From: Flavobacterium humidisoli
GTDB taxonomy: Bacteria > Bacteroidota > Bacteroidia > Flavobacteriales > Flavobacteriaceae
NCBI RefSeq assembly: GCF_023272795.1
Contig: NZ_CP096829.1
Coordinates: 3,224,001 to 3,288,000, forward strand
DNA: 64,000 bases
Direction of reading: 5' to 3'
In this document: piece after piece, positions 7,143 to 25,899 of the stretch
Numbering within the stretch: position 1 is the first letter of the stretch
Layout of the letters: each line of letters opens with the position of its first letter
Notes under the pieces: model-generated
Seen by the model: only the letters and a program-made list of their open reading frames with translations
What the model was told of the DNA's origin: nothing
The model's database searches: none
Position numbers and translations under genes: made by a program

Positions 7143-9863
7143 ATGAAAGACGAAGAAGACGATAACATAATTCCAAACGACGACGAGAATAATCAGGATG
7201 AAAACCAAATTGATGACAATCAAAATGGAGATGACGATGAGATTATCGACGTAGATGCTAAACAGTTTGAAGGGCAGCATTTTTACGAAAATCAGGAAGA
7301 AGAAGGCGAAGACGTTATTACGAAAGTAACCGGAATGTACAAAGACTGGTTCTTGGATTACGCTTCGTATGTAATTTTGGAACGTGCAGTTCCAGCTATC
7401 GAGGACGGATTCAAGCCTGTTCAGCGTCGTATTATGCACTCTTTAAAAGAGTTAGATGATGGTCGTTATAATAAAGTTGCCAATGTTGTTGGTCACACCA
7501 TGCAGTATCACCCACACGGAGATGCGAGTATTGGTGATGCGATGGTGCAAATTGGTCAAAAAGATTTATTAATTGACTGTCAAGGTAACTGGGGTAATAT
7601 TTTAACAGGCGATGGAGCAGCAGCTTCACGTTATATCGAGGCACGTTTGTCTAAATTTGCTTTGGAGGTTTTGTATTCTCCAAAAATAACCGATTGGGGA
7701 GTTTCGTACGATGGTCGTCGTGCAGAACCAAACAATCTTCCGGTAAAATTCCCATTGCTTTTAGCGCAGGGGGCAGAAGGTATCGCAGTTGGTTTATCAA
7801 CAAAAGTTTTACCGCATAACTTTAACGAATTAATTGACGCTTCGATTAAAATCTTAAAAGGAAAACCGTTTACGCTTTATCCTGATTTTATGACGCAGGG
7901 TATTGCCGATGTTTCTAATTACAACGACGGAATGCGTGGCGGGCGTGTGCGTGTGCGTGCTAAAATTTCGCAATTAGACAAAAATACATTGGTGATTACA
8001 CAGATTCCGTTTTCGACCAATACATCGAGTTTAATTGACAGTATTTTGAAAGCAAATGAAAAAGGTAAAATCAAAATCAAGAAAATTGAAGACAATACGG
8101 CTGCCGATGTTGAGATTTTAATTCACCTTTTCCCAGGCGTTTCGCCAGATAAAACGATTGATGCGTTATTTGCATTTACAGCTTGTGAAACATCTGTAGC
8201 GCCTTTAGGATGTGTTATTGAGGATAATAAACCGTTGTTTATCGGTGTTTCTCAAATGTTGAAAATTTCAACAGAAAGAACAGTCGATTTACTTCGTCAG
8301 GAATTAGAAATTCAGTTAGAAGAATTAAAAAATAAGTGGCACTTTTCTACGTTGGAGAAAATCTTCATTCGTGAAGAAATGTATATTGACTTCAAATTAT
8401 ATGGAGACAGAGAATCACTTTACAAATACTTATACGATCGTTTTGAGCCTTTCAAAAAATCATTCGTTAGAGACATCAATGACGACGATTTACAAAGACT
8501 GACTCAAATTCCGATGATTCGTATTACGCGTTTTGACTCTGATAAAGCTGATGATTTAATCGCTAAGTTAGAAGATGAAATGAAAGAAGTAGAGTATAAT
8601 CTGGAACATTTAACAGATTTTGCAATTGCTTATTTTACGAAATTAAAAGAGAAATACGGAAAAGGCCGTGAACGCCAGACAGAACTTCGTGTTTTTGATA
8701 ACGTTGAAGCCACAAAAGTTGTTTTAAGAAACACAAAACTTTATGTAAATCGTGAAGAGGGATTTGTTGGAACAAGTTTAAAGAAAGACGAATACGTTGG
8801 CGATTGTTCTGATATTGATGATGTTATCGTGTTTTTAAGAGACGGAACATTGATGATCACAAAAGTAGATGCCAAAACATTTATAGGAAAAGACATTATA
8901 CACGCAGCAGTTTTTGATAAAAACGATAAACGCACCATTTATAATATGATGTATCGCGATGGTAAATCGGGGCCGTCTTATATAAAACGTTTTAATGTTA
9001 CAGGTGTAACACGTGATAAAGCTTACGATTTAACTAATGGAACAAACGGCTCTCAGGTGGTTTACTTTTCACATAATCCAAATGGAGAAGCTGAGGTTGT
9101 AACTATTTTGCTTCGTCAGGTTGGAACGATTAAGAAATTGAAATTCGATATTGATTTTGCTAATTTAGCGATTAAAGGACGTGGTTCTAAAGGAAACTTG
9201 GTTACCAAATATCCAATCAAGAAAATCGAGTTAAAAGAAAAAGGAATTTCCACTTTACTGCCAAGAAAAGTTTGGTTTGATGATACGGTAAAACGCTTAA
9301 ATGTTGATGCTAGAGGAGAACTATTAGGCGAATTTAAACCAAGTGATAAAATATTGGTAATTAGTCAATCGGGTAAATTGAAGGTTATTATTCCGGAATT
9401 ATCGACTCACTTTGATGAAGATATGATCGTTTTGGAAAAATGGAAACCTAAAAAACCAATTTCTGCAATTTATTATGATGGAGAAAAAGAGCGTTATTTC
9501 TTGAAACGTTTCCTTGTAGAAAATGAAGGTAAGGAAGAAAGTTTTATTACCGATCACCCGAATTCGCAGTTAGAGATTGTTTCAACAGATTATCGTCCGG
9601 TTGCACAATTGGTTTTTGCCAAAGTAAAAGGGGTTCAAAAAGATGATTTACATATTGATGTAGAAGACTTTATAGCCGTAAAAGGTTTCAAGGCTTTAGG
9701 GAATCAATTGACAACAGATAAACTAAAACAGGTAAATTTATTAGATCCGCTTCCTTATGAAGAACCTGTTGAAGAAGTTCCTGAAAGACCAGAAATTTCA
9801 GAAGACGATCCAGTCGAAACAGAATTAGATGACGATGGCCAGATAGGCTTGGTTTTAGAATAA
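7143..9863 (+). CDS. parC: DNA topoisomerase IV subunit A
   Basis: 906-residue type IIA topoisomerase cleavage subunit. The first 60 residues are an Asp/Glu/Asn-rich tail common in Flavobacteriaceae. The winged-helix and tower domains follow, with catalytic Tyr164 in AASRYIEARL. RRIMHSLKELDDGRYNKVANVVGHTMQYHPHGD (two adjoining motifs, read RRIMHS and HPHGD) marks the quinolone-site region. The C-terminal third forms the beta-pinwheel DNA-wrapping domain and ends in another acidic tail. It partners with ParE. A strong bidirectional terminator follows directly. Confidence 0.94.
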   Translation: MKDEEDDNIIPNDDENNQDENQIDDNQNGDDDEIIDVDAKQFEGQHFYENQEEEGEDVITKVTGMYKDWFLDYASYVILERAVPAIEDGFKPVQRRIMHSLKELDDGRYNKVANVVGHTMQYHPHGDASIGDAMVQIGQKDLLIDCQGNWGNILTGDGAAASRYIEARLSKFALEVLYSPKITDWGVSYDGRRAEPNNLPVKFPLLLAQGAEGIAVGLSTKVLPHNFNELIDASIKILKGKPFTLYPDFMTQGIADVSNYNDGMRGGRVRVRAKISQLDKNTLVITQIPFSTNTSSLIDSILKANEKGKIKIKKIEDNTAADVEILIHLFPGVSPDKTIDALFAFTACETSVAPLGCVIEDNKPLFIGVSQMLKISTERTVDLLRQELEIQLEELKNKWHFSTLEKIFIREEMYIDFKLYGDRESLYKYLYDRFEPFKKSFVRDINDDDLQRLTQIPMIRITRFDSDKADDLIAKLEDEMKEVEYNLEHLTDFAIAYFTKLKEKYGKGRERQTELRVFDNVEATKVVLRNTKLYVNREEGFVGTSLKKDEYVGDCSDIDDVIVFLRDGTLMITKVDAKTFIGKDIIHAAVFDKNDKRTIYNMMYRDGKSGPSYIKRFNVTGVTRDKAYDLTNGTNGSQVVYFSHNPNGEAEVVTILLRQVGTIKKLKFDIDFANLAIKGRGSKGNLVTKYPIKKIELKEKGISTLLPRKVWFDDTVKRLNVDARGELLGEFKPSDKILVISQSGKLKVIIPELSTHFDEDMIVLEKWKPKKPISAIYYDGEKERYFLKRFLVENEGKEESFITDHPNSQLEIVSTDYRPVAQLVFAKVKGVQKDDLHIDVEDFIAVKGFKALGNQLTTDKLKQVNLLDPLPYEEPVEEVPERPEISEDDPVETELDDDGQIGLVLE

Positions 9864-17514: not shown

Positions 17515-18009
17515 ATGAGTGAGAAACATGTAGTAGTACAAGGAGCAACATTGAAATGTAAATTCAGTGTAGAACCCAAAACAGATACTTTGAAGGTAAA
17601 ATCGCAGGAAAAACATTATGCCAACGATAAAGATGCCGAAAAGAAACTGATTGCAACTGATAAAGAAATTGGGCAGACACTAGAGAAAAATACTTTTGGT
17701 AAATGCAAAATGCAGCCAAACGGAAGCGGTGATTATCTCCCTTGTCAGGCTGTAATTAATAAATGGAGCGGGTTTTATGAAAAAGTGACGCTGTCTAATA
17801 AAGGAAAAATTTTATTAGAAGACAGTAAAGGAACTTGCCCGATTGGAGGACCGGACTGTATCACGGTAGACAAACACGGACAAAAGGCCGAGCTTGGAAA
17901 ACAGAATGCAAAAAAAGAAAAACCACAGGTAAACAATCAAATTAATCCTTTGGTAAATACATCAAAATTTAAGGAGAGTTTAGAAGAGAGTGATTCTATT
18001 TGTAAATAA
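17515..18009 (+). CDS. PAAR-like DUF4280 spike-tip protein
   Basis: 164 residues of the DUF4280 family (PAAR-like). It opens with VVVQGATLKCKF, and the conserved cysteines recur in FGKCKMQPNG, YLPCQAV and GTCPIGGPDCITV. The C-terminal 40 residues form a Gln/Asn/Lys-rich tail ending in Cys. PAAR proteins sharpen the VgrG spike and carry effectors. The next gene, a cell-wall-degrading effector, starts 11 bases later, so this is probably its carrier. Confidence 0.82.
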   Translation: MSEKHVVVQGATLKCKFSVEPKTDTLKVKSQEKHYANDKDAEKKLIATDKEIGQTLEKNTFGKCKMQPNGSGDYLPCQAVINKWSGFYEKVTLSNKGKILLEDSKGTCPIGGPDCITVDKHGQKAELGKQNAKKEKPQVNNQINPLVNTSKFKESLEESDSICK

Positions 18010-18020
18010 AATAAAGCAGT

Positions 18021-20495
18021 ATGTCAGATTTTAAAATAATTGGAAATACGGATCCTGTTGTAGGTAAAGAAGAGTTTTATTCAGTAAATACTTTTTTACC
18101 AAGCATTCTGCCTTTTCAAAACACAGCTTCAAACAATAGTTTTGAACAGCCTGTAAAATGGGAAATTTACATTCTAGAAAATGGAAGATGGCGGAAAACA
18201 AAAGAAAATGATAAAACAGGAAAACGAGTTTCGTATACCTTTCTTCAAAAAAGTTTAGAGAGAAAAGGAATTCGTATTCTGGCAAGAAGAGGAGAAGATG
18301 TGGCACGCCTCAATATAAAAACACATCCAGCCGAGACTCCCAAAATTGAAAGTATAGAATTGCTGGATAAAGCAGGAAAAAAGCCAACAGCACCGCTTTC
18401 TTACGGACAGACTCTTAAAGCAAGAGTACATTGTCTGCATATGGAAAAACGCAAAGTATCTGTAACCCTTTGGGAAGATGATGCCGCTGGAGCAGGGCAC
18501 AATAAAGCAAATGAAAAAAATATATTGCAAACGCTTTCTGGAATAGTTAAAGACGGAAAAGCGGATGTCGATTTTGTATTACGACCAAGTTTTGCAAAAA
18601 TTGCCGATAAGAGTAAAGACGAGGGTAAAATACACGAATATTATGTTACTACCGATTTTGATAACGAAAAATTAGCTAGTAAAAATGTGAATGTAAATGA
18701 CCTGGAAACACCTGTAGCGCCTGTTAAAAAGAAAATACCATTACAGCAGCCGGCACAAACTAAACCGCCTTTGCAGCAGCCAAAAGCAAATACACCAGTT
18801 ACAAATGGAACTGGAAAAGCTAAAAGCGAAATTACAAAAGTTCATATTACAGATGCAGCAGGACGTCCTATTGTTGGACTTTTTAAAGAAAAACAAATAA
18901 AAGTTTGGATTGATTCTGTAGGATTAATAGGCAACCAAATACGATTTAGATTATATGAGCATGATGTTATAAGCAATGATATATTAATAGATCAAAAGTT
19001 CACAATTACCAGCAATATTTTTCCCGTAGATGTTTTTCTCAATCGAATATTAAAAAGTAAAGGAGATGACATAGGAGAAGGAGCAGAGCAAGAATTGTTT
19101 GCGGATGTAGAGGTAGTAACAGACCCAAAACAAAGCAAACATAGCGGCAAAATAGATGTAGATGCAAAAGTGTTTAAACCAGACCCTGTTGATGTTACTA
19201 ATAAAGTTGCAAAGGTTGGTGAGGGAGATAAGAATGATAAGGAGGATAAAGGCAACGTAGTTTGTCAAAAATGTATTGATCCAGTAACTGTAAAACAGCT
19301 TCAAGATTTATTTCCAAAGGCAGACAAAGAAACTTTAAAAACCATTGCGGAAACATATACAAAACATATGAAAGCATTAAAAATGAATACTTGTTGGAAT
19401 AAGGCTCATTTTTTTGCACAGGCGATGGTTGAAAGTGGAAAAAGCTTTAAATTAAAGGAAGGTGAAGGTATGAATTATTTGGCTGATGATTTGTATCTCG
19501 GAAGATGGAATCCCAAAAAGAAAAAGTATGTTACGATATTTTCATATTTTAAGACAAGGAAAGAGGAGGCTTATAAGTATGGTAGAATTGAAGAAATAAA
19601 GAATGGTAAAAAGATAATTACCCAAGTAGCTGATCAAAAAGCGATTGCAAATCGTGTTTATGCTAATAGAGTTGGAAATAAAGGGATTGAATCAGGAGAT
19701 GGATGGAATTTTAGAGGAAAAGGATGTATTCAATTAACAGGTAGAACTAATTATGAAAATGCAAATAAATATACTTTAAAGTATGAAAATGCAGATATAC
19801 TTAAGAATTCAGATCTAGTTGCAAAAGATATTAAAATTGCGGTTTTATCATCAATGGCATATTTTGATATGTATGGAGTCAATAAAAAAGCAAACAAATG
19901 TAAGGATGTTAAAAACAAAATTGCTCCGATGATCGGAAATGATGTGCAACTTCAAGATGGAAAAACTAATCATGGAGAAAAACAAGAAGCTTTTGATGAT
20001 TTTACTTCTAAGACCTTTACTATATCTAATTGTAAATATGGAAGTTCAGAAAATAAAGAAGAAAAGAAAGAGACAGGAAAAGGTGTTACAATTAGGTTGG
20101 TGAGAAAATGGCAAACAAAAAAATCGACTATTGGGGAATTTACTATTGATGATTCTGATATTAAAGGATATATATTGGAAGAAAAGGGGCCAGATACAAC
20201 AGTTTCGGGTATAGAGCAAAGAGTTCCTGTGGGCACTTATAATTTAAAATGGCATAATGGAACTAAGAAAAAAGGAGTCTTAAAATTATATAATAGTGAT
20301 GTATCTGAAAGTAGAGCTATTTTAATACATTCTGGAAATACAGCGGCAGATACTGAAGGTTGCTTATTACCAGGAAGTTCAAAATCTACAGATTTTGTCG
20401 GAGGTAGTCAGGCAAAAGTTAAAGAAATAAATGATTATGTTAAGGAGAAAGGCGTTGAAGGAGCAAAAATTATTATAACAGCAAAGTATGAATAA
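18021..20495 (+). CDS. T6SS cell-wall effector: Ig-like repeats, GH19-type lysozyme/chitinase domain, DUF5675
   Basis: 824 residues, no signal peptide. Two Ig-like segments cover about 1-235, then a Pro/Gln linker (about 240-265) and a third beta domain (KVHITDAAGRPIVG onward, about 270-400). A GH19-like domain is at about 425-675 with FFAQAMVESG (probable catalytic Glu471), GWNFRGKGCIQLTGRTNYE and LSSMAYFDMYG. The C-terminal domain, about 688-824, matches DUF5675 (RVPVGTYNL, AILIHSGN, TEGCLLPGS). It should cut peptidoglycan glycan strands in the target periplasm. The PAAR-like gene lies just upstream, and a signal-peptide SH3b protein overlaps its 3' end by 8 bases. Confidence 0.82.
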   Translation: MSDFKIIGNTDPVVGKEEFYSVNTFLPSILPFQNTASNNSFEQPVKWEIYILENGRWRKTKENDKTGKRVSYTFLQKSLERKGIRILARRGEDVARLNIKTHPAETPKIESIELLDKAGKKPTAPLSYGQTLKARVHCLHMEKRKVSVTLWEDDAAGAGHNKANEKNILQTLSGIVKDGKADVDFVLRPSFAKIADKSKDEGKIHEYYVTTDFDNEKLASKNVNVNDLETPVAPVKKKIPLQQPAQTKPPLQQPKANTPVTNGTGKAKSEITKVHITDAAGRPIVGLFKEKQIKVWIDSVGLIGNQIRFRLYEHDVISNDILIDQKFTITSNIFPVDVFLNRILKSKGDDIGEGAEQELFADVEVVTDPKQSKHSGKIDVDAKVFKPDPVDVTNKVAKVGEGDKNDKEDKGNVVCQKCIDPVTVKQLQDLFPKADKETLKTIAETYTKHMKALKMNTCWNKAHFFAQAMVESGKSFKLKEGEGMNYLADDLYLGRWNPKKKKYVTIFSYFKTRKEEAYKYGRIEEIKNGKKIITQVADQKAIANRVYANRVGNKGIESGDGWNFRGKGCIQLTGRTNYENANKYTLKYENADILKNSDLVAKDIKIAVLSSMAYFDMYGVNKKANKCKDVKNKIAPMIGNDVQLQDGKTNHGEKQEAFDDFTSKTFTISNCKYGSSENKEEKKETGKGVTIRLVRKWQTKKSTIGEFTIDDSDIKGYILEEKGPDTTVSGIEQRVPVGTYNLKWHNGTKKKGVLKLYNSDVSESRAILIHSGNTAADTEGCLLPGSSKSTDFVGGSQAKVKEINDYVKEKGVEGAKIIITAKYE

Positions 20496-21243
20496 ATATT
20501 TTATAATCTTTTTATTAATTGCAACATGCAATATAAATGCACAGAATAATTTTAATGTCCGCCAACTTCAAGAGGGATATAATGCTAAAAACAAAAAAAT
20601 ATTTATAGATAATTTCCCTAATAATTTTAAGGATTTTAAATTAATTTTTGGTTGGAACGATAAATTAGATAAGCCAAATGCATTATATAATGAAGCAAAT
20701 GATTTTATAAAATATTTTTTTGAATTATCATCTAATAATGATAATTGCAAAAAAATGATAATGAAAATTGCATGTCAAGCGAAGTGGGAAGCTGACGCTG
20801 TTAATTATTTTCATATGAATCTAGTTTTGTTAGTTGAGAATGATGAAAATTTTGATAAAATGTTGCAAACATTGGAGGATAAAGATTTGAATGAATTTTG
20901 GCGTTTTTATTTTGATATTGAAAACTTAATTTATTCACAAAAACTATATACTATACTTAATGCTTTTATGAAAGAAAAAGCAATGTATGCTTTCAATATA
21001 TTAAAAAAAGAAAGGAGTAATTATACTGATAAACATGGAAAATTATATAAATATCAAATTTTTGATAAAGATGGTTATTGTAATTTAAGGAAAAATGGTA
21101 ATTCTAAATCTGATGTTATTGAAAAAATAGAAAATAATGAAATTGTAAATGTTTTAGATAGTTCAGAAGATTGGTGGTTTATCCAAACGAATAAAGGATT
21201 AGTAGGATTTGTACATAAAAGTAGAATTAAAGTTAAAAATTGA
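20488..21243 (+). CDS. secreted SH3b-domain protein, candidate immunity protein
   Basis: 251 residues with a signal peptide (FIIFLLIATCNINA-QN). The middle, residues 30-190, is unrecognised and helical. The C-terminus is a bacterial SH3 domain at about 190-250 (YCNLRKNGNSKSDVI, DWWFIQTNKGLVGFVH). It overlaps the effector gene by 8 bases, which ties its translation to the effector. Periplasmic location matches where the effector would act, so it is the prime candidate for protection. The AT-rich, Asn/Lys-rich codon use differs from the structural T6SS genes. Confidence 0.7.
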   Translation: MNKYFIIFLLIATCNINAQNNFNVRQLQEGYNAKNKKIFIDNFPNNFKDFKLIFGWNDKLDKPNALYNEANDFIKYFFELSSNNDNCKKMIMKIACQAKWEADAVNYFHMNLVLLVENDENFDKMLQTLEDKDLNEFWRFYFDIENLIYSQKLYTILNAFMKEKAMYAFNILKKERSNYTDKHGKLYKYQIFDKDGYCNLRKNGNSKSDVIEKIENNEIVNVLDSSEDWWFIQTNKGLVGFVHKSRIKVKN

Positions 21244-21244
21244 A

Positions 21245-21895
21245 ATGAAAAATAAGTTTTTTTTAAAGATTATGATCTTAATGTTATGTTTAATTTCATG
21301 TAATGATAAAAAAGAAAAAGTTGTAGATATCAAAGAAAAAGATTCTAAAGAAATCGTTGGAGATACTTTAACCATTAACAAAACAAAAGATTACATTAAA
21401 GATTATAAAGCAAAATATACATCAAAAAAATATAATATAAGAGTTGAAAAAGACTGCGATCTAAATATGGATGGGCAAATTGATAAAATTATAGTTTTTG
21501 AACCTTCTGAAATAGCTAATAATAAATTAACAAAAAAATCGCCTGTCTGTATTTTTATCAAGAAAGAAAATAATTATGATATTTATGAAAATAAAAACAT
21601 TATTTACACTTCTTTTTTTAATTCAATGGCAGAAGGTTTTCAAGATTTAGTGATTAAAGATAATTACTTCACATTTGAAGAAAATAATCAGGCAGGAGAT
21701 GTTAGAGGTAATGACTATATAACATTTAAGTATGACTTAAAATCTAACGAAATTTTATTACACAAATATAGTATTGAATTAATTAGTATTGATGGTGAAA
21801 ATGACAAAACTTTCACATACGACAAAAAAGTGTTTGGAAGTATTTTTTTTAATGATTTTGATATTGATAAAATAAAACAGAAAATCAATAATTAA
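21245..21895 (+). CDS. lipoprotein, candidate T6SS immunity protein (paralogue 1)
   Basis: 216 residues from the ATG at 21245; a longer in-frame start at 21209 would overlap the upstream gene and spoil the signal. The lipobox is LISC. A Ca-loop-like motif DLNMDGQIDK lies near the middle, then YENKNII, AEGFQDLVIKDNYFT and YITFKYDLKSNEILLHKY. These C-terminal blocks recur in the lipoprotein at 23390-24553, so the two are homologues. It starts one base after the stop of the SH3b gene. The role is inferred only from location and context. Confidence 0.68.
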   Translation: MKNKFFLKIMILMLCLISCNDKKEKVVDIKEKDSKEIVGDTLTINKTKDYIKDYKAKYTSKKYNIRVEKDCDLNMDGQIDKIIVFEPSEIANNKLTKKSPVCIFIKKENNYDIYENKNIIYTSFFNSMAEGFQDLVIKDNYFTFEENNQAGDVRGNDYITFKYDLKSNEILLHKYSIELISIDGENDKTFTYDKKVFGSIFFNDFDIDKIKQKINN

Positions 21896-21959
21896 TAAAT
21901 TTTATATTAAGAGCCTACAGCGCTAACGGAATATTAAAAATAAACAAATAAAGAAAGTA

Positions 21960-22045
21960 AGCTCCTTGACATATTGAAAAGAAAAGCCCCAGCTAGCAAA
22001 GGTTTTAGACTTTTGTTAGCTGAGGGAATTTATAAATAGAAATTA
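21960..22045. repeat. 86-bp intergenic repeat, copy 1 (with stem-loop)
   Basis: It runs from AGCTCCTTGACATATTG to ATAGAAATTA and is almost identical to 23193-23279. Inside, CCCAGCTAGCAAA pairs with TTTGTTAGCTG-A-GGG to give a hairpin with one bulge. It ends 22 bases before the ATG of the lipoprotein gene at 22068. The gene-free stretch 21896-22067 contains nothing else recognised. Confidence 0.85.
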
Positions 22046-22067: not shown

Positions 22068-23057
22068 ATGAAAAGAATTTTAAGTATAACGTTTTTAGCT
22101 TTTTTATTTACAAGTTGTAAAGAAAATGTAAGTGCAGAAAATATAAAAAACATAGAAAATAGTTTAAGTGCAGAAATTACCAAAGATTCCTTAAATGTAT
22201 CGTTTGAAGAAAAAAATAAACAAGATGAAGAAATATTTCAATTAGAAAAACCCATAAAAACAATAAAGGGAGAATATGAAGCTGCTTATAATGGTTATAA
22301 AGTACTTCTAAATTCTAATTCCAACAATCAGGAATTAACTTTTTTTAAAAACAAAACAGAAATAAAAAAAGTATTAAATTTTTATTATGAAAATGGCGAT
22401 ATAGTTTTTAAACTTTATAAATCCAATTTAGGTAATCTTGTTTTATTAATAGAAGGAAGAGATTACTATAGTAGCAATTTGGGAATATACTACATTGATA
22501 ATAAATCTAATTCTATAATAGAAATTGATGATACATTAGTTTTTAGACAAGAAGATCCAGAGAAACTTGGAGTTAAAGACTTAATAGGACACATTTCAAA
22601 AGAAGGGGATGTATTAAAATCTAATTTTTATTTAGGGGATAAATTTTTATATGAGAAAAAATATAACATTCAGAAAAAGATACAGCAAAGTATAAAAAAG
22701 TATGGAGACAATTGGCTTGGGATCTATCAAACACAAATAAATAAAAATAGTAATGATACAAATACAATGCATATTATTTCTTTAAAAATAAATAAAGACT
22801 CAATAATATTTGAAGTAAACGGTTATCATGTGTCTCAAAAATATCTATTAGGAGCTAAAGAAGTCGAAAATAAATTAAAATTAGAATTTATAAAAGATTT
22901 ATCTGAATATAATGATCCTCAAATAGAAAAAATACAAGATTTTGGGGTTATTACTTTTAAAGATAATATATATATGTTGCGGTGTCCTTATATTGATTTA
23001 AACTTTGTTTATGGCTTAAAGCAAGTATGCGTTTTAAAAAAAGATATATCGCATTAA
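22068..23057 (+). CDS. lipoprotein of unknown function, candidate orphan immunity protein
   Basis: 329 residues with a lipobox (FLFTSC) and then a charged linker to about residue 70. Two beta-rich halves follow: the first contains YEAAYNGYKVLL and LVLLIEGRDYYSS, the second WLGIYQTQIN, HIISLKINKDSIIFEVNGYHVSQ and FGVITFKDNIYML. No known family is recognised. It sits in a run of lipoprotein genes behind the GH19-type effector, flanked on both sides by copies of an intergenic repeat, which suggests a separately acquired cassette. Confidence 0.6.
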   Translation: MKRILSITFLAFLFTSCKENVSAENIKNIENSLSAEITKDSLNVSFEEKNKQDEEIFQLEKPIKTIKGEYEAAYNGYKVLLNSNSNNQELTFFKNKTEIKKVLNFYYENGDIVFKLYKSNLGNLVLLIEGRDYYSSNLGIYYIDNKSNSIIEIDDTLVFRQEDPEKLGVKDLIGHISKEGDVLKSNFYLGDKFLYEKKYNIQKKIQQSIKKYGDNWLGIYQTQINKNSNDTNTMHIISLKINKDSIIFEVNGYHVSQKYLLGAKEVENKLKLEFIKDLSEYNDPQIEKIQDFGVITFKDNIYMLRCPYIDLNFVYGLKQVCVLKKDISH

Positions 23058-23192
23058 ATAACAGTTTCTATTATAATTGCGTTAAGTGGAAAAGTAAACA
23101 TAAGTTTGAAAATTATTAGATTTTGATGTGTCATAATAATGGTTTTGTAACTTTTATGAATTAAACATAATATCTAAAATCGTAATATAAAA

Positions 23193-23279
23193 AGCTCCTT
23201 GACATATTGAAAAAGAAAAGCCCCAGCTAGCAAAAGTTTTAGGCTTTTGTTAGCTGAGGGAATTTATAAAGAGAAATTA
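23193..23279. repeat. 87-bp intergenic repeat, copy 2
   Basis: Second copy of the element at 21960-22045, differing at only a few positions, including in the hairpin loop. It ends 2 bases before an ATG at 23282. The preceding stretch 23058-23192 has no gene and no motif that I recognise. Confidence 0.85.
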
Positions 23280-23281
23280 AA

Positions 23282-24553
23282 ATGAAAATAATTCTAAATA
23301 TTAGGAGCTTAATTGTATTAATTATCTCTTTTACGATAATTAGTTGTAAGAAATATGTAGCTTCTTCTAGGATAGATCCTGAGAGTTATATGAAACTAAA
23401 TTTGATAATACTGGTGAGAAAATATAGTAACTTAAAACAAATCATAAAAGTAATACTAATCTTTTTATTGTTTATTTCCTGTAATGGACAAAATTCAAAT
23501 AAAAAAAAGCAGGTTTTAAATAAGGATAAAGAACAAATCAAAAATATAAACAATGAACAATCATCTGTTGATTTTTTTGACCAAAAATACTTCAATGGTT
23601 ACATGATTTCGTTTGGAGATGAAGATCTTTCTGAACATCCATATCGTTATTATTACAATTATAATAATAATGATATACAATGGTTTGCTATAAGCTATGT
23701 TCCTAAAGACATTTCTTTGCATAATTATTGGGTCAACTATATTAAAAGTTTTGACTCAGGTGAAAATAAAGAAAATTCAATAATAGAAAAAAAGGTCAAT
23801 AAAGATTTAAGTTTATATAACATTTTTGCAGTTTATATACCTAAAAAATATTTAGACGTATCTAATGGTGAATCAGAAGAGGCTATGTTTTTTAAAAATA
23901 ATACTGAGGTCTTTTTTTATCTATATAATTCATTTGACAATAAATGGAGGTTTCTAAAAAAAGTCCAAACAAAAAGTCCGCAAATAGGGCAACGTGATTT
24001 TTTCTATAAACAATTTCCAGAATTATTTTCTTCTGCTAATGTTCTGAAATTAAATGAGAATAGAAACATTGCATATTTTTATGATTATGATTTAGATCAA
24101 GATGGAATAAAAGATAAAATTATAATTTATACAAATGATGAAGAAAAAGGAGAGTTTGAGAGAATTCATTTTGGACTTCGAATGGAAATAAAAAAAGGTT
24201 TGCCAAATAATTCTTTTAAAACATGGTATGAAAACAAGAATATTATACCTAAGAACAATTTTAATTGTGCTGCAGAAGGATTTAGTACGGTAGTATTTAA
24301 GGACAACTATTTTACAGTTGAGAATCAAGTTTGCTCAGATTATATTGAAATATCGACCTATATTACTTTTAAAGTAATTGGAAACAACATAGTACTCCAT
24401 AAATATGGTGAAAGATATTTTGATAAGGCTGATCACGAAAAACAGATACCTTCAAAGATATGGGGAATTAAGGATTTTCAGAATGTTAACTTTGATGAAG
24501 TAACGGATGATTTTCTTGTGAAGTTAAGTCAAGTAAAACCAAAAAATAAGTAA
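23282..24553 (+). CDS. lipoprotein with two tandem signal sequences, candidate immunity protein (paralogue 2, possibly chimeric)
   Basis: 423 residues from 23282; the working start may be the internal ATG at 23390 (387 residues). The first signal has lipobox TIISC, and about 45 residues later a second complete signal has lipobox LFISC. Only one can be used, so the first looks like the leftover 5' end of another lipoprotein gene fused in frame. The middle is unrecognised. The C-terminal 180 residues match the lipoprotein at 21245: DLDQDGIKDK, YENKNII, AEGFSTVVFKDNYFT, YITFK and IVLHKYG. Confidence 0.65.
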   Translation: MKIILNIRSLIVLIISFTIISCKKYVASSRIDPESYMKLNLIILVRKYSNLKQIIKVILIFLLFISCNGQNSNKKKQVLNKDKEQIKNINNEQSSVDFFDQKYFNGYMISFGDEDLSEHPYRYYYNYNNNDIQWFAISYVPKDISLHNYWVNYIKSFDSGENKENSIIEKKVNKDLSLYNIFAVYIPKKYLDVSNGESEEAMFFKNNTEVFFYLYNSFDNKWRFLKKVQTKSPQIGQRDFFYKQFPELFSSANVLKLNENRNIAYFYDYDLDQDGIKDKIIIYTNDEEKGEFERIHFGLRMEIKKGLPNNSFKTWYENKNIIPKNNFNCAAEGFSTVVFKDNYFTVENQVCSDYIEISTYITFKVIGNNIVLHKYGERYFDKADHEKQIPSKIWGIKDFQNVNFDEVTDDFLVKLSQVKPKNK

Positions 24554-24561
24554 AAATATAT

Positions 24562-24577
24562 TTAAGCCCCTTGACAT
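24562..24577. repeat. left-edge remnant of the 87-bp repeat before tssK
   Basis: AAGCCCCTTGACATA here matches the left edge of the repeats at 21960 and 23193 (AGCTCCTTGACATA), after which similarity ends. The rest of 24578-24729 shows no clear motif. It marks the same kind of junction at the downstream edge of the immunity array. Confidence 0.5.
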
Positions 24578-24729
24578 AAAATCCGGCTCAGTGCGCGCAA
24601 TTGTATCTATTTAACCCGAAAAGACTTGTTATTATTAGATTTAATACCATTTCGTAATAGCAAAAACTAACTTGAAACCAAAACAGAGAAAATTAAAGCA
24701 TTCTCATTTCAAATAAAAAATATAGAATT

Positions 24730-25899
24730 ATGATAGAAAAATTAAGTCATTTTCCCGTAAACTGGATTGATGGGATGAAGATAAATAAAAGTCATTTTTT
24801 ATCGATTCAGGATAACGTTTCTGAGTTGGTAAACGATGCTATAGGTATTCATACCACTCCTATAAGTTATGGACTTCTGGATTCTGGAAACCAAAATAAA
24901 GAGGCCACAAAAATCACTTTAGGAATTGATAACCACAAACTGCTTCGCGTACGTGTAGAAGAATGCCACGCTATTACCCCAAACGGATCAAGAATCGAAA
25001 TTAGTAAAAGCAATACCGATACCTTAGATCTTCAGGTTCCGTATCCGGAAGATACTTATGAAATAAAAGAAGGCGAACAATTAGTTTTATTGGCTTGTAT
25101 CTCGGTGAATTCTAAAAAGAGAATTCCTTTTGGCGAACCAGATCCTGATGAAGTGCCGCCAAGATATCCGTACACACAGCCTGAGTACAAGCTTCATTTA
25201 ATTAAAGCCGAAGAATTTCGATCAGGAATAGGGTATGGTGGTTTTTACCTGGCAATTGGTAAAGTGCTTATTGGAGATACAACAGTTTTAGACGAAGATT
25301 ATATTCCGCCATCAGTAACGGTAGCCTGTCATCCAAAATTGGTTGACATGCAGGCGCAAATTGCACGCTCGTTTGGTCAGATTGAGATTTATTCGGTTCA
25401 GATCTCTCAAAAAATTAACCGCGCACAGCAGACAGGAGTCTTGTCGCAGACTGTTATGCAATTGGCAGACAATACTGGATATTATTTAGGAAGTACCTTA
25501 ACCCAATTTCGTTGGTTTTCATTGCATCAGCATCCAGCTTCAATGTTAAGTACGGTGGTGTCATTTGCCAGAGTGATGAAGAATTTTATCGATTCAAAAT
25601 CTGGTGCAGGGAAAGAAGAACTACTGAATTATTTTGCCGAGTGGTGTGATATTTCGCAGGGAGATCTCGAAATCCTGTTTACCACTCTTATAAATGCGGG
25701 TTACGATCATGTTCATATTGATAAAACAGCCTCACTTGCAATGAACGCTTTGGCTAGAATTGAGAAATTATTTGAGACACTGAACAAACTGGATTACATC
25801 GGTAAGAAGAAAGAAAACATTGAGTTGTTTGTTGCCGAAACAGATAAAAAAGACATCGTTCATAATCCAAAACGACACGGTTTCTTTATCAAAGATTAA
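24730..25899 (+). CDS. tssK: T6SS baseplate subunit TssK
   Basis: 389 residues. The N-terminal shoulder begins PVNWIDGMKINKSHF, equivalent to the W-x-x-G-M-x-x-x-x-H motif of TssK. EIYSVQISQKINRAQQTGVL is in the middle helical part, and a C-terminal head follows. TssK trimers join the TssF/G wedge to the membrane complex. The protein is shorter than proteobacterial TssK, as usual in this phylum. It starts the structural block tssK-tssO-tssB-tssC after the immunity array. Confidence 0.85.
   Translation: MIEKLSHFPVNWIDGMKINKSHFLSIQDNVSELVNDAIGIHTTPISYGLLDSGNQNKEATKITLGIDNHKLLRVRVEECHAITPNGSRIEISKSNTDTLDLQVPYPEDTYEIKEGEQLVLLACISVNSKKRIPFGEPDPDEVPPRYPYTQPEYKLHLIKAEEFRSGIGYGGFYLAIGKVLIGDTTVLDEDYIPPSVTVACHPKLVDMQAQIARSFGQIEIYSVQISQKINRAQQTGVLSQTVMQLADNTGYYLGSTLTQFRWFSLHQHPASMLSTVVSFARVMKNFIDSKSGAGKEELLNYFAEWCDISQGDLEILFTTLINAGYDHVHIDKTASLAMNALARIEKLFETLNKLDYIGKKKENIELFVAETDKKDIVHNPKRHGFFIKD

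What the first reader, a model, noticed from the sequence alone, without database searches (positions are those of the whole stretch)
23282..23500. Two lipoprotein signals in tandem in one reading frame
The ORF has a full signal and lipobox (TIISC) and then, 45 residues on, another full signal and lipobox (LFISC). This is best explained by in-frame fusion of the 5' end of one immunity gene to an intact second gene, leaving a chimera. It sits directly after the 87-bp repeat, which points to the repeat as the joining site.
Basis: partly seen in the sequence, partly recalled or inferred. Interest (0 to 1): 0.5.

Follow-up and report, generated by a model that had tools for sequence, protein, structure and literature searches.

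The report
Recombination scar in toxin-immunity gene array
A Flavobacterium carries a gene with two protein-export signals in a row, most likely because its array of toxin-immunity genes was cut and rejoined: the front of one immunity gene, the last bit of a lost toxin gene and a complete second immunity gene now read as one.

Summary
In detail: ORF 23282-24553 has lipobox signals at Cys22 and Cys67 in one frame, behind a second copy of an 87-bp repeat. The window is a Flavobacterium T6SSiii cluster. (1) Between the signals lies the 3' end of a lost T6SS effector gene of the Peptidase_M23 type, frame-shifted by one base; the second gene belongs to the immunity proteins found beside such effectors. 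(2) The ATG that three relatives have at that gene's start site is CTG here; GTG 23414 follows it. (3) The repeat is not the internal joining site. It is a hairpin element that precedes many immunity genes of such arrays; the join lies 6 nt behind the first lipobox cysteine. The double signal is not conserved: 1 of 63 ORFs behind such elements. Best model: Vibrio-like effector displacement plus capture of a 'leader + start + signal' front module. Such fronts appear to be shuffled among unrelated immunity genes in the genus, with change points 0-34 nt (median 9) behind the cysteine. The scar is a new variant of a known kind; I found the hairpin element and the shuffling in no paper listing. Start use and protein processing are inferred.

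The parts
17515..18009 (+). DUF4280 gene upstream of the effector ('PAAR-like' is recalled)
   Evidence: Pfam PF14107 E 1.6e-20
18021..20495 (+). present effector gene: C-terminal DUF5675 and a weak Glyco_hydro_19 match
   Evidence: Pfam PF18925 E 5.1e-23; PF00182 E 1.8e-4, below its cut-off
20488..21243 (+). SH3-domain protein overlapping the effector stop; presumed cognate immunity
   Evidence: Pfam SH3_3 E 4.4e-9; same order in G079 and G054
21209..21895 (+). second presumed cognate immunity lipoprotein; related to the C part of the chimera (38% over 117 aa)
21959..22045 (+). hairpin element, copy 1
   Evidence: 97.6 bits for 21959-22032
22068..23057 (+). presumed orphan immunity lipoprotein gene behind copy 1
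23192..23279 (+). hairpin element, copy 2 (the '87-bp repeat')
   Evidence: 93.9 bits for 23192-23266
23282..23353 (+). front module: start, first signal, lipobox Cys22 (23345-23347) and 6 nt more; 83% nt identity over 72 nt to the 5' end of the 296-aa G091 gene
23354..23368 (+). junction zone
   Evidence: identity to G091 ends, effector-tail similarity begins
23369..23427 (+). remnant of the 3' end of a lost M23-type effector gene (RIDPESYMK in the ORF's frame, then after a one-base frame change TKFDNTGEKI and a stop at 23425-23427)
   Evidence: nhmmer profile of two intact effector ends: window 23367-23417 E 3.6e-4, best place in the loci searched; alignment
23414..24553 (+). immunity gene B, complete; GTG 23414 next to its native start site, second lipobox Cys67 (23480-23482)
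23477..24028 (+). N part of gene B, related to immunity proteins encoded next to M23 effectors
   Evidence: 33% to G057, 70% to H122
24041..24547 (+). C part of gene B, related to the 21209-21895 protein
24564..24578 (+). possible vestige of another element (AAGCCCCTTGACATA) in front of the tssK leader
   Evidence: read; not tested against chance
24730..25899 (+). tssK, downstream border of the array
   Evidence: NCBIfam TIGR03353 E 5.4e-6, below its cut-off; no Pfam match; 80% or more identical in 31 of 398 genus genomes

Best explanation
The ORF is a recombination scar in a T6SSiii effector/immunity array of a Flavobacterium. A front module (hairpin leader, ATG and signal peptide of one immunity-type lipoprotein gene) was joined, about 6 nt behind its lipobox cysteine, to the last ~20 codons of an older M23-type effector gene and the complete immunity gene (gene B) behind it. 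The rest of that effector is gone, as in the effector-displacement model of Vibrio cholerae. A one-base length difference in the leftover tail puts the captured start and signal in frame with gene B, which has its own signal, so two signals stand in tandem. Shown: order of the parts, homologies, loss of the ATG at gene B's start site, open and constrained body. Inferred: translation now starts mainly at 23282 (ATG 23390 and GTG 23414 remain as weaker starts), the first signal targets the protein, the second is vestigial, and the product still serves as immunity.
For: (a) Leader plus first 24 codons match a complete gene in G091 that lies behind the same leader; the match stops 6 nt behind the Cys codon. 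(b) The next ~50 nt match the ends of two intact effectors (G057, Peptidase_M23 E 6e-13 in its last 478 residues; G098, 53% identical to G057 there): profile E 3.6e-4, best place in the loci searched. (c) In G057 the immunity gene that starts inside the effector end is 33% identical to gene B over 202 aa; in G098 the one at the effector end is 27.5% identical to H122's gene B. (d) In G079 and H122 gene B follows short pieces of the same tail (profile E 1.2 and 0.58, weak alone). (e) The own genome has no match at E 0.001 to the M23 effector C-terminus or to the complete first gene. (f) G057, G079 and H122 have ATG where the window has CTG, and two further ATGs of H122 are AAC and TTA here. (g) Effector 3' remnants in front of immunity genes also in G054, G094 and F. 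psychroterrae. (h) Double signal in 1 of 63.
Against: The tail match is short (~50 nt). G098's immunity protein has no match to the window's gene B itself at E 0.001. The G079 and H122 tails are below significance alone. No same-species strain was available to date the event or to exclude an error in a run of A; with the length that the relatives have there, the two signals would not share a frame. GTG 23414 gives a normal-looking 23-residue lipoprotein signal, so gene B may still be translated from it. No expression or protein data.
Confidence: 0.8

Rival explanations
1. The tandem is cosmetic: gene B is expressed from its own site (GTG 23414 or ATG 23390), and the upstream signal belongs to a decaying stub that happens to be open in the same frame.
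For: GTG 23414 gives MRKYSNLKQIIKVILIFLLFISC, a typical signal at the site where relatives start. The effector remnant shows that the region is a leftover.
Against: The ATG of three relatives at that site is CTG here, while the front module has a complete leader, an ATG 15 nt behind the 74-nt element (median of 63: 18 nt) and an intact signal.
Confidence: 0.35
2. The repeat itself is the joining site: unequal crossing-over between the two 87-bp copies made the chimera.
For: The copies are 95% identical and 1.2 kb apart, so they could recombine; the leader may have been the upstream anchor.
Against: The chimeric junction lies 74 nt beyond the repeat, inside coding sequence; the continuity of repeat and signal is the same as in G091.
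Confidence: 0.05
3. The double signal is a working feature, for example one gene with two start sites and two destinations.
For: Both signals look intact; several starts are possible.
Against: Not conserved: 1 of 63 ORFs behind elements; three relatives of gene B aligned have one signal.
Confidence: 0.07
4. Sequencing error: a one-base error in a run of A joins two frames that are separate in the cell.
For: The frame change sits at a run of A; the tails of G057, G098, G079 and H122 are one base longer there.
Against: The genome is one contig, listed as 99.99% complete; the loss of gene B's ATG would be a coincidence, though GTG remains.
Confidence: 0.1

Closest known systems
Effector displacement and orphan immunity arrays of Vibrio cholerae T6SS (Kirchberger et al. 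2017, PMC5361080; passages and section 13 read)
   Same: A new effector-immunity module displaces the old effector, keeps its immunity gene and shifts it back; [quoted passage not shown] Homology-facilitated illegitimate recombination is proposed there.
   Different: Here it is T6SSiii of a Flavobacterium; the remnant is ~20 codons, is fused in frame to another lipoprotein's front, and the arrays carry a hairpin element. The passages I read do not mention a leader repeat or signal swapping.
rAID orphan immunity arrays of Bacteroidales (passages of PMC12247911 read; the 2019 paper is recalled only)
   Same: Co-oriented orphan immunity genes with conserved intergenic sequence motifs.
   Different: rAID is described there with a predicted tyrosine recombinase; none was found among the 27 window proteins scanned, and these arrays lie inside the T6SS cluster between effector and tssK.
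T7SS esaG/tipC tandem immunity genes (Garrett et al. 2022, PMC9484751; passages read)
   Same: Conserved blocks, intergenic regions included, let immunity genes recombine, expand and contract.
   Different: There the genes are paralogues; here similar fronts sit on bodies without BLASTP similarity and the change point is near the lipobox.

Membership tests
T6SS subtype iii cluster | TssN, TssO and Bacteroidota-type TssC and TssD genes (assignment to subtype iii is recalled) | tested here: met
   TssN E 1.4e-78, TssO E 4e-20, TssC E 1.9e-236, TssD twice
Effector displacement scar (V. cholerae type) | 3' remnant of another effector in front of its own immunity gene | tested here: met
   profile match 23367-23417 E 3.6e-4; gene-B relative next to the intact M23 effector of G057, more distant one in G098
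Effector displacement scar (V. cholerae type) | cognate effector absent from the genome (orphan immunity) | tested here: met
   own genome: no match to the G057 M23 effector C-terminus at E 0.001
Effector displacement scar (V. cholerae type) | gene B still protects against an M23 effector | not testable with these tools
   needs a competition or co-expression assay
rAID array | adjacent tyrosine recombinase | tested here: not met
   no tyrosine recombinase family among 27 window proteins scanned with Pfam at E 0.01 (8, 20, one twice); some genes within and all beyond 4162-38627 were not scanned
rAID array | conserved intergenic sequence between immunity genes | tested here: met
   element R1; not compared with the rAID motif itself
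Integron attC-like site | recombinogenic folded DNA strand with an integrase | tested here: inconclusive
   hairpin covaries; 65 G-U against 5 A-C cells on the gene-sense strand, which favours RNA; no integrase among the proteins scanned; recombination itself not testable
Known Rfam family | match above gathering score | tested here: not met
   0 matches in the window

The most novel reading that the evidence does not exclude
In Flavobacterium T6SSiii arrays a 74-nt leader hairpin plus start codon plus lipoprotein signal acts as an exchangeable front module. When an effector is displaced and its immunity gene loses the coupled translation start, the orphan captures a front module by recombination that ends near the lipobox. 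The window's double signal is such a capture in which the old signal was not removed.
Probability: 0.5. Interest if true: 0.65.

Novelty: new variant of a known kind. Interest (0 to 1): 0.45.

Why it matters
It shows at base level how an immunity gene can outlive its toxin: which pieces stay, where the joins fall, and how the orphan may regain a start and a signal. If the front module is truly exchangeable, arrays of orphan immunity genes in Flavobacterium have a common expression-and-export adaptor that makes newly acquired immunity bodies usable, a simple answer to how such arrays stay functional while turning over. The hairpin would also be a new structured element tied to one weapon system.

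Tried and rejected
The repeat as the internal joining site: rejected by the position of the break. A promoter in or before the repeat: the Bacteroidota -7 motif TAnnTTTG (recalled) occurs in 0 of 63 elements and in 2 of 63 upstream 100-nt stretches, shuffled mean 3.3, so no support; the element's conserved TTGAC (59 of 63) is unexplained. Rfam: 0 matches at gathering score. Structure prediction of gene B from four sequences gave mean pLDDT 43 and was not used; no fold search was made. Pfam gave no family for the chimera at E 0.01 and NCBIfam only one match far below its cut-off. A scan of GTDB contigs gave 2 loci. One search also listed effector-like hits in L025, L027, L031, L049, L105, L108 and L114-L117; most are probably effectors that my start motif missed, and I did not sort them. 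The listings of paper searches showed nothing that I could recognise on this hairpin element, on front shuffling in T6SS immunity arrays, or on tandem lipoprotein signals in immunity genes; this covers only the open-licence library, those terms and the titles and abstract starts listed.

Full report
WHAT IS THERE. ORF 23282-24553 (+, 423 aa) has a lipobox signal ending at Cys22 (TIISC) and another ending at Cys67 (LFISC), in one frame. It starts 3 nt behind the second copy of an 88-column, 95% identical repeat (21959-22045 and 23192-23279); these are the only two matches found in the 5,636,211-base genome. The surroundings are a T6SS cluster of the Bacteroidota kind: TssN, TssO, TssC, two TssD, VgrG-like, TssG, TssF and a ClpV-like ATPase. 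The genus is Flavobacterium by inference: one of its unnamed genus mates (G184) has a contig of the same length, 233,271, as the F. psychroterrae contig found by a protein search.

THE PIECE BETWEEN THE SIGNALS. In G057 an effector with a Peptidase_M23 domain ends ...DRLNPENYMKTKFDNDGNKSN and its immunity gene starts inside that end. In G098 a related effector (53% identical over residues 1-215 of the query) ends ...STRVDPEKYMKTKFDETTKGNPE with an immunity gene at its end. The window has SSRIDPESYMK in the frame of the ORF and then TKFDNTGEKI with a stop in the next frame, one base shorter than the relatives at a run of A. A DNA profile of only the two intact effector ends gives window 23367-23417 as its best place in the loci then held (548,067 bases in all, less the four source loci, with overlapping copies among them), E 3.6e-4; the next other place scores E 0.25. 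The corresponding places in H122 and G079 score E 0.58 and 1.2 and count only by their position directly in front of gene B. The own genome has no match to the M23 effector C-terminus at E 0.001.

THE SECOND GENE (GENE B). Its N part is 33% identical to the G057 immunity protein and 70% to that of Flavobacterium sp. H122; the G098 immunity protein matches H122's (27.5%) and G057's (24%) but not the window's at E 0.001. So gene B belongs to the immunity proteins found beside M23 effectors, and its cognate effector is missing here. The three relatives aligned have one signal. At the native start site G079, G057 and H122 have ATG; the window has CTG followed by GTG (23414), and two further ATGs of H122 are AAC and TTA here. 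The body looks constrained: N part dS 0.121, dN 0.047 against F. psychroterrae B1 (ratio 0.39), ratio 0.24 against H122; C part 0.21 and 0.22 against G079 and F. psychroterrae B2; the N-part ratios against those two are 0.63 and 0.68 at dS 0.9-1.0. F. psychroterrae B1 carries nearly the same N part with a different front, an element copy and another signal, the similarity beginning around the lipobox.

THE FIRST SIGNAL. It matches a complete 296-aa lipoprotein gene in G091 (L032:14014-14904), which lies behind its own element copy. Identity runs through element, start and signal and drops 6 nt behind the Cys codon: 0.85 before, 0.21 after. The complete gene has no match in the own genome at E 0.001. 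The repeat is therefore part of that gene's front, and the join is inside coding sequence, 74 nt past the end of the repeat.

THE REPEAT IS AN ARRAY ELEMENT. A covariance model (74 positions, 14 pairs) from 28 copies finds 77 copies in 24 of 398 genus genomes (strict filters, so a lower bound). Of the 77, 71 lie 200-12,616 bp upstream of tssK on the same strand; the six others are two near a contig start in G077, one near a contig end in G187, one in G175 and weak ones in G094 and G237. Of the 24 genomes 23 have tssK, against 54 of 398 overall; 8 of 31 genomes with a close tssK have no element. In a family sample it occurred in 1 of 149 genomes, the window's own. The hairpin covaries: 96.4% of 392 cells paired, 7 of 14 pairs with changes on both sides, slid controls 31-53% paired (the structure comes from the same alignment, which favours it). 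In the table there are 65 G-U or U-G cells and 5 A-C or C-A cells, so the gene-sense strand folds better than the other, as expected for RNA. In 30 sources (523,342 bases) there were 96 matches; I dropped 22 that are the opposite strand of the palindrome and kept 74. Of the 74, 63 are followed within 130 nt by an ATG ORF of at least 60 aa or one running off the locus; 57 of these start within 40 nt (median 18) and 57 have a lipobox within 45 residues. The other 11 lead to no such ORF and may be decayed cassettes. The preceding open frame ends a median 39 nt before the element. I did not count how many array genes lack an element.

FRONT-MODULE SHUFFLING. Among 57 element-borne lipoprotein genes, 15 of 1408 pairs with no BLASTP similarity of the bodies (E 0.01) share at least 80% of the signal's nucleotides; among 77 lipoprotein-like ORFs of the same loci without an element core upstream, 0 of 2765 pairs do. 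Pairs are not independent, several of the 15 share a gene, and one keeps 0.6 identity beyond the change, so its bodies may be related. The change point lies 0-34 nt behind the Cys codon, median 9, 9 of 15 within 15 nt. The window's own pair with G091 is one of the 15. Conversely, homologous bodies can carry unrelated fronts: L106_11504/L109_15101, body 89%, signal 0.58, where unrelated pairs average 0.56. Other pairs with homologous bodies keep homologous fronts, so swapping is not universal. Selection for working signals could by itself place the joins near the lipobox; a hot spot is not shown.

OTHER SCARS. G054 keeps ~91 codons and G094 ~62 codons of another effector's end in front of immunity genes that by eye match those effectors; in F. 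psychroterrae an effector that seems to lack its front lies inside the array.

MECHANISM AND VERDICT. The order 'front module, effector tail, its immunity gene' is what the V. cholerae displacement model predicts when an incoming stretch ends illegitimately inside the old effector (PMC5361080, section 13). The extra step here is that the incoming end is a lipoprotein front, and a one-base difference in the tail sets it in frame with gene B. I think the captured start at 23282 is now the main one, because it has the complete leader and gene B's ATG is gone; GTG 23414 remains a real alternative. The first signal would then anchor the protein and the second be a short vestigial hydrophobic stretch. 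These last steps are inference. The scar is a new variant of a known kind; the hairpin element and front shuffling are the more novel part and rest on sequence statistics only.

Noticed in passing
L026 (G094), three sites on the minus strand: A more distant relative has an analogous element: a similar 5' core (TTCATTGACATT) followed by what looks like a hairpin of quite different sequence.
   Followed up: partly
window 24564-24578: AAGCCCCTTGACATA directly in front of the tssK leader looks like the stump of a third element, i.e. another lost cassette.
   Followed up: no
window 23414-24553: Gene B is itself a mosaic: N part like M23-effector immunity proteins, C part related to the protein of 21209-21895; H122 and G057 have another C part.
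   Followed up: partly
L029:8300-8660 and L035:7750-7860: Both stretches next to effector remnants hold a similar repeat-like sequence (GCGGATTTGC.ATCC.TGCC), perhaps another mobile repeat at displacement joins.
   Followed up: no
L024:14235-14904 (G109): Gene B behind an element is decayed: most of its N part is missing and the frame is broken.
   Followed up: partly
L103 (G175), ORF behind the element at 9157-9230 (minus strand): This ORF has the first codons of a common front but no signal right behind them, possibly a malformed join of the opposite kind.
   Followed up: no
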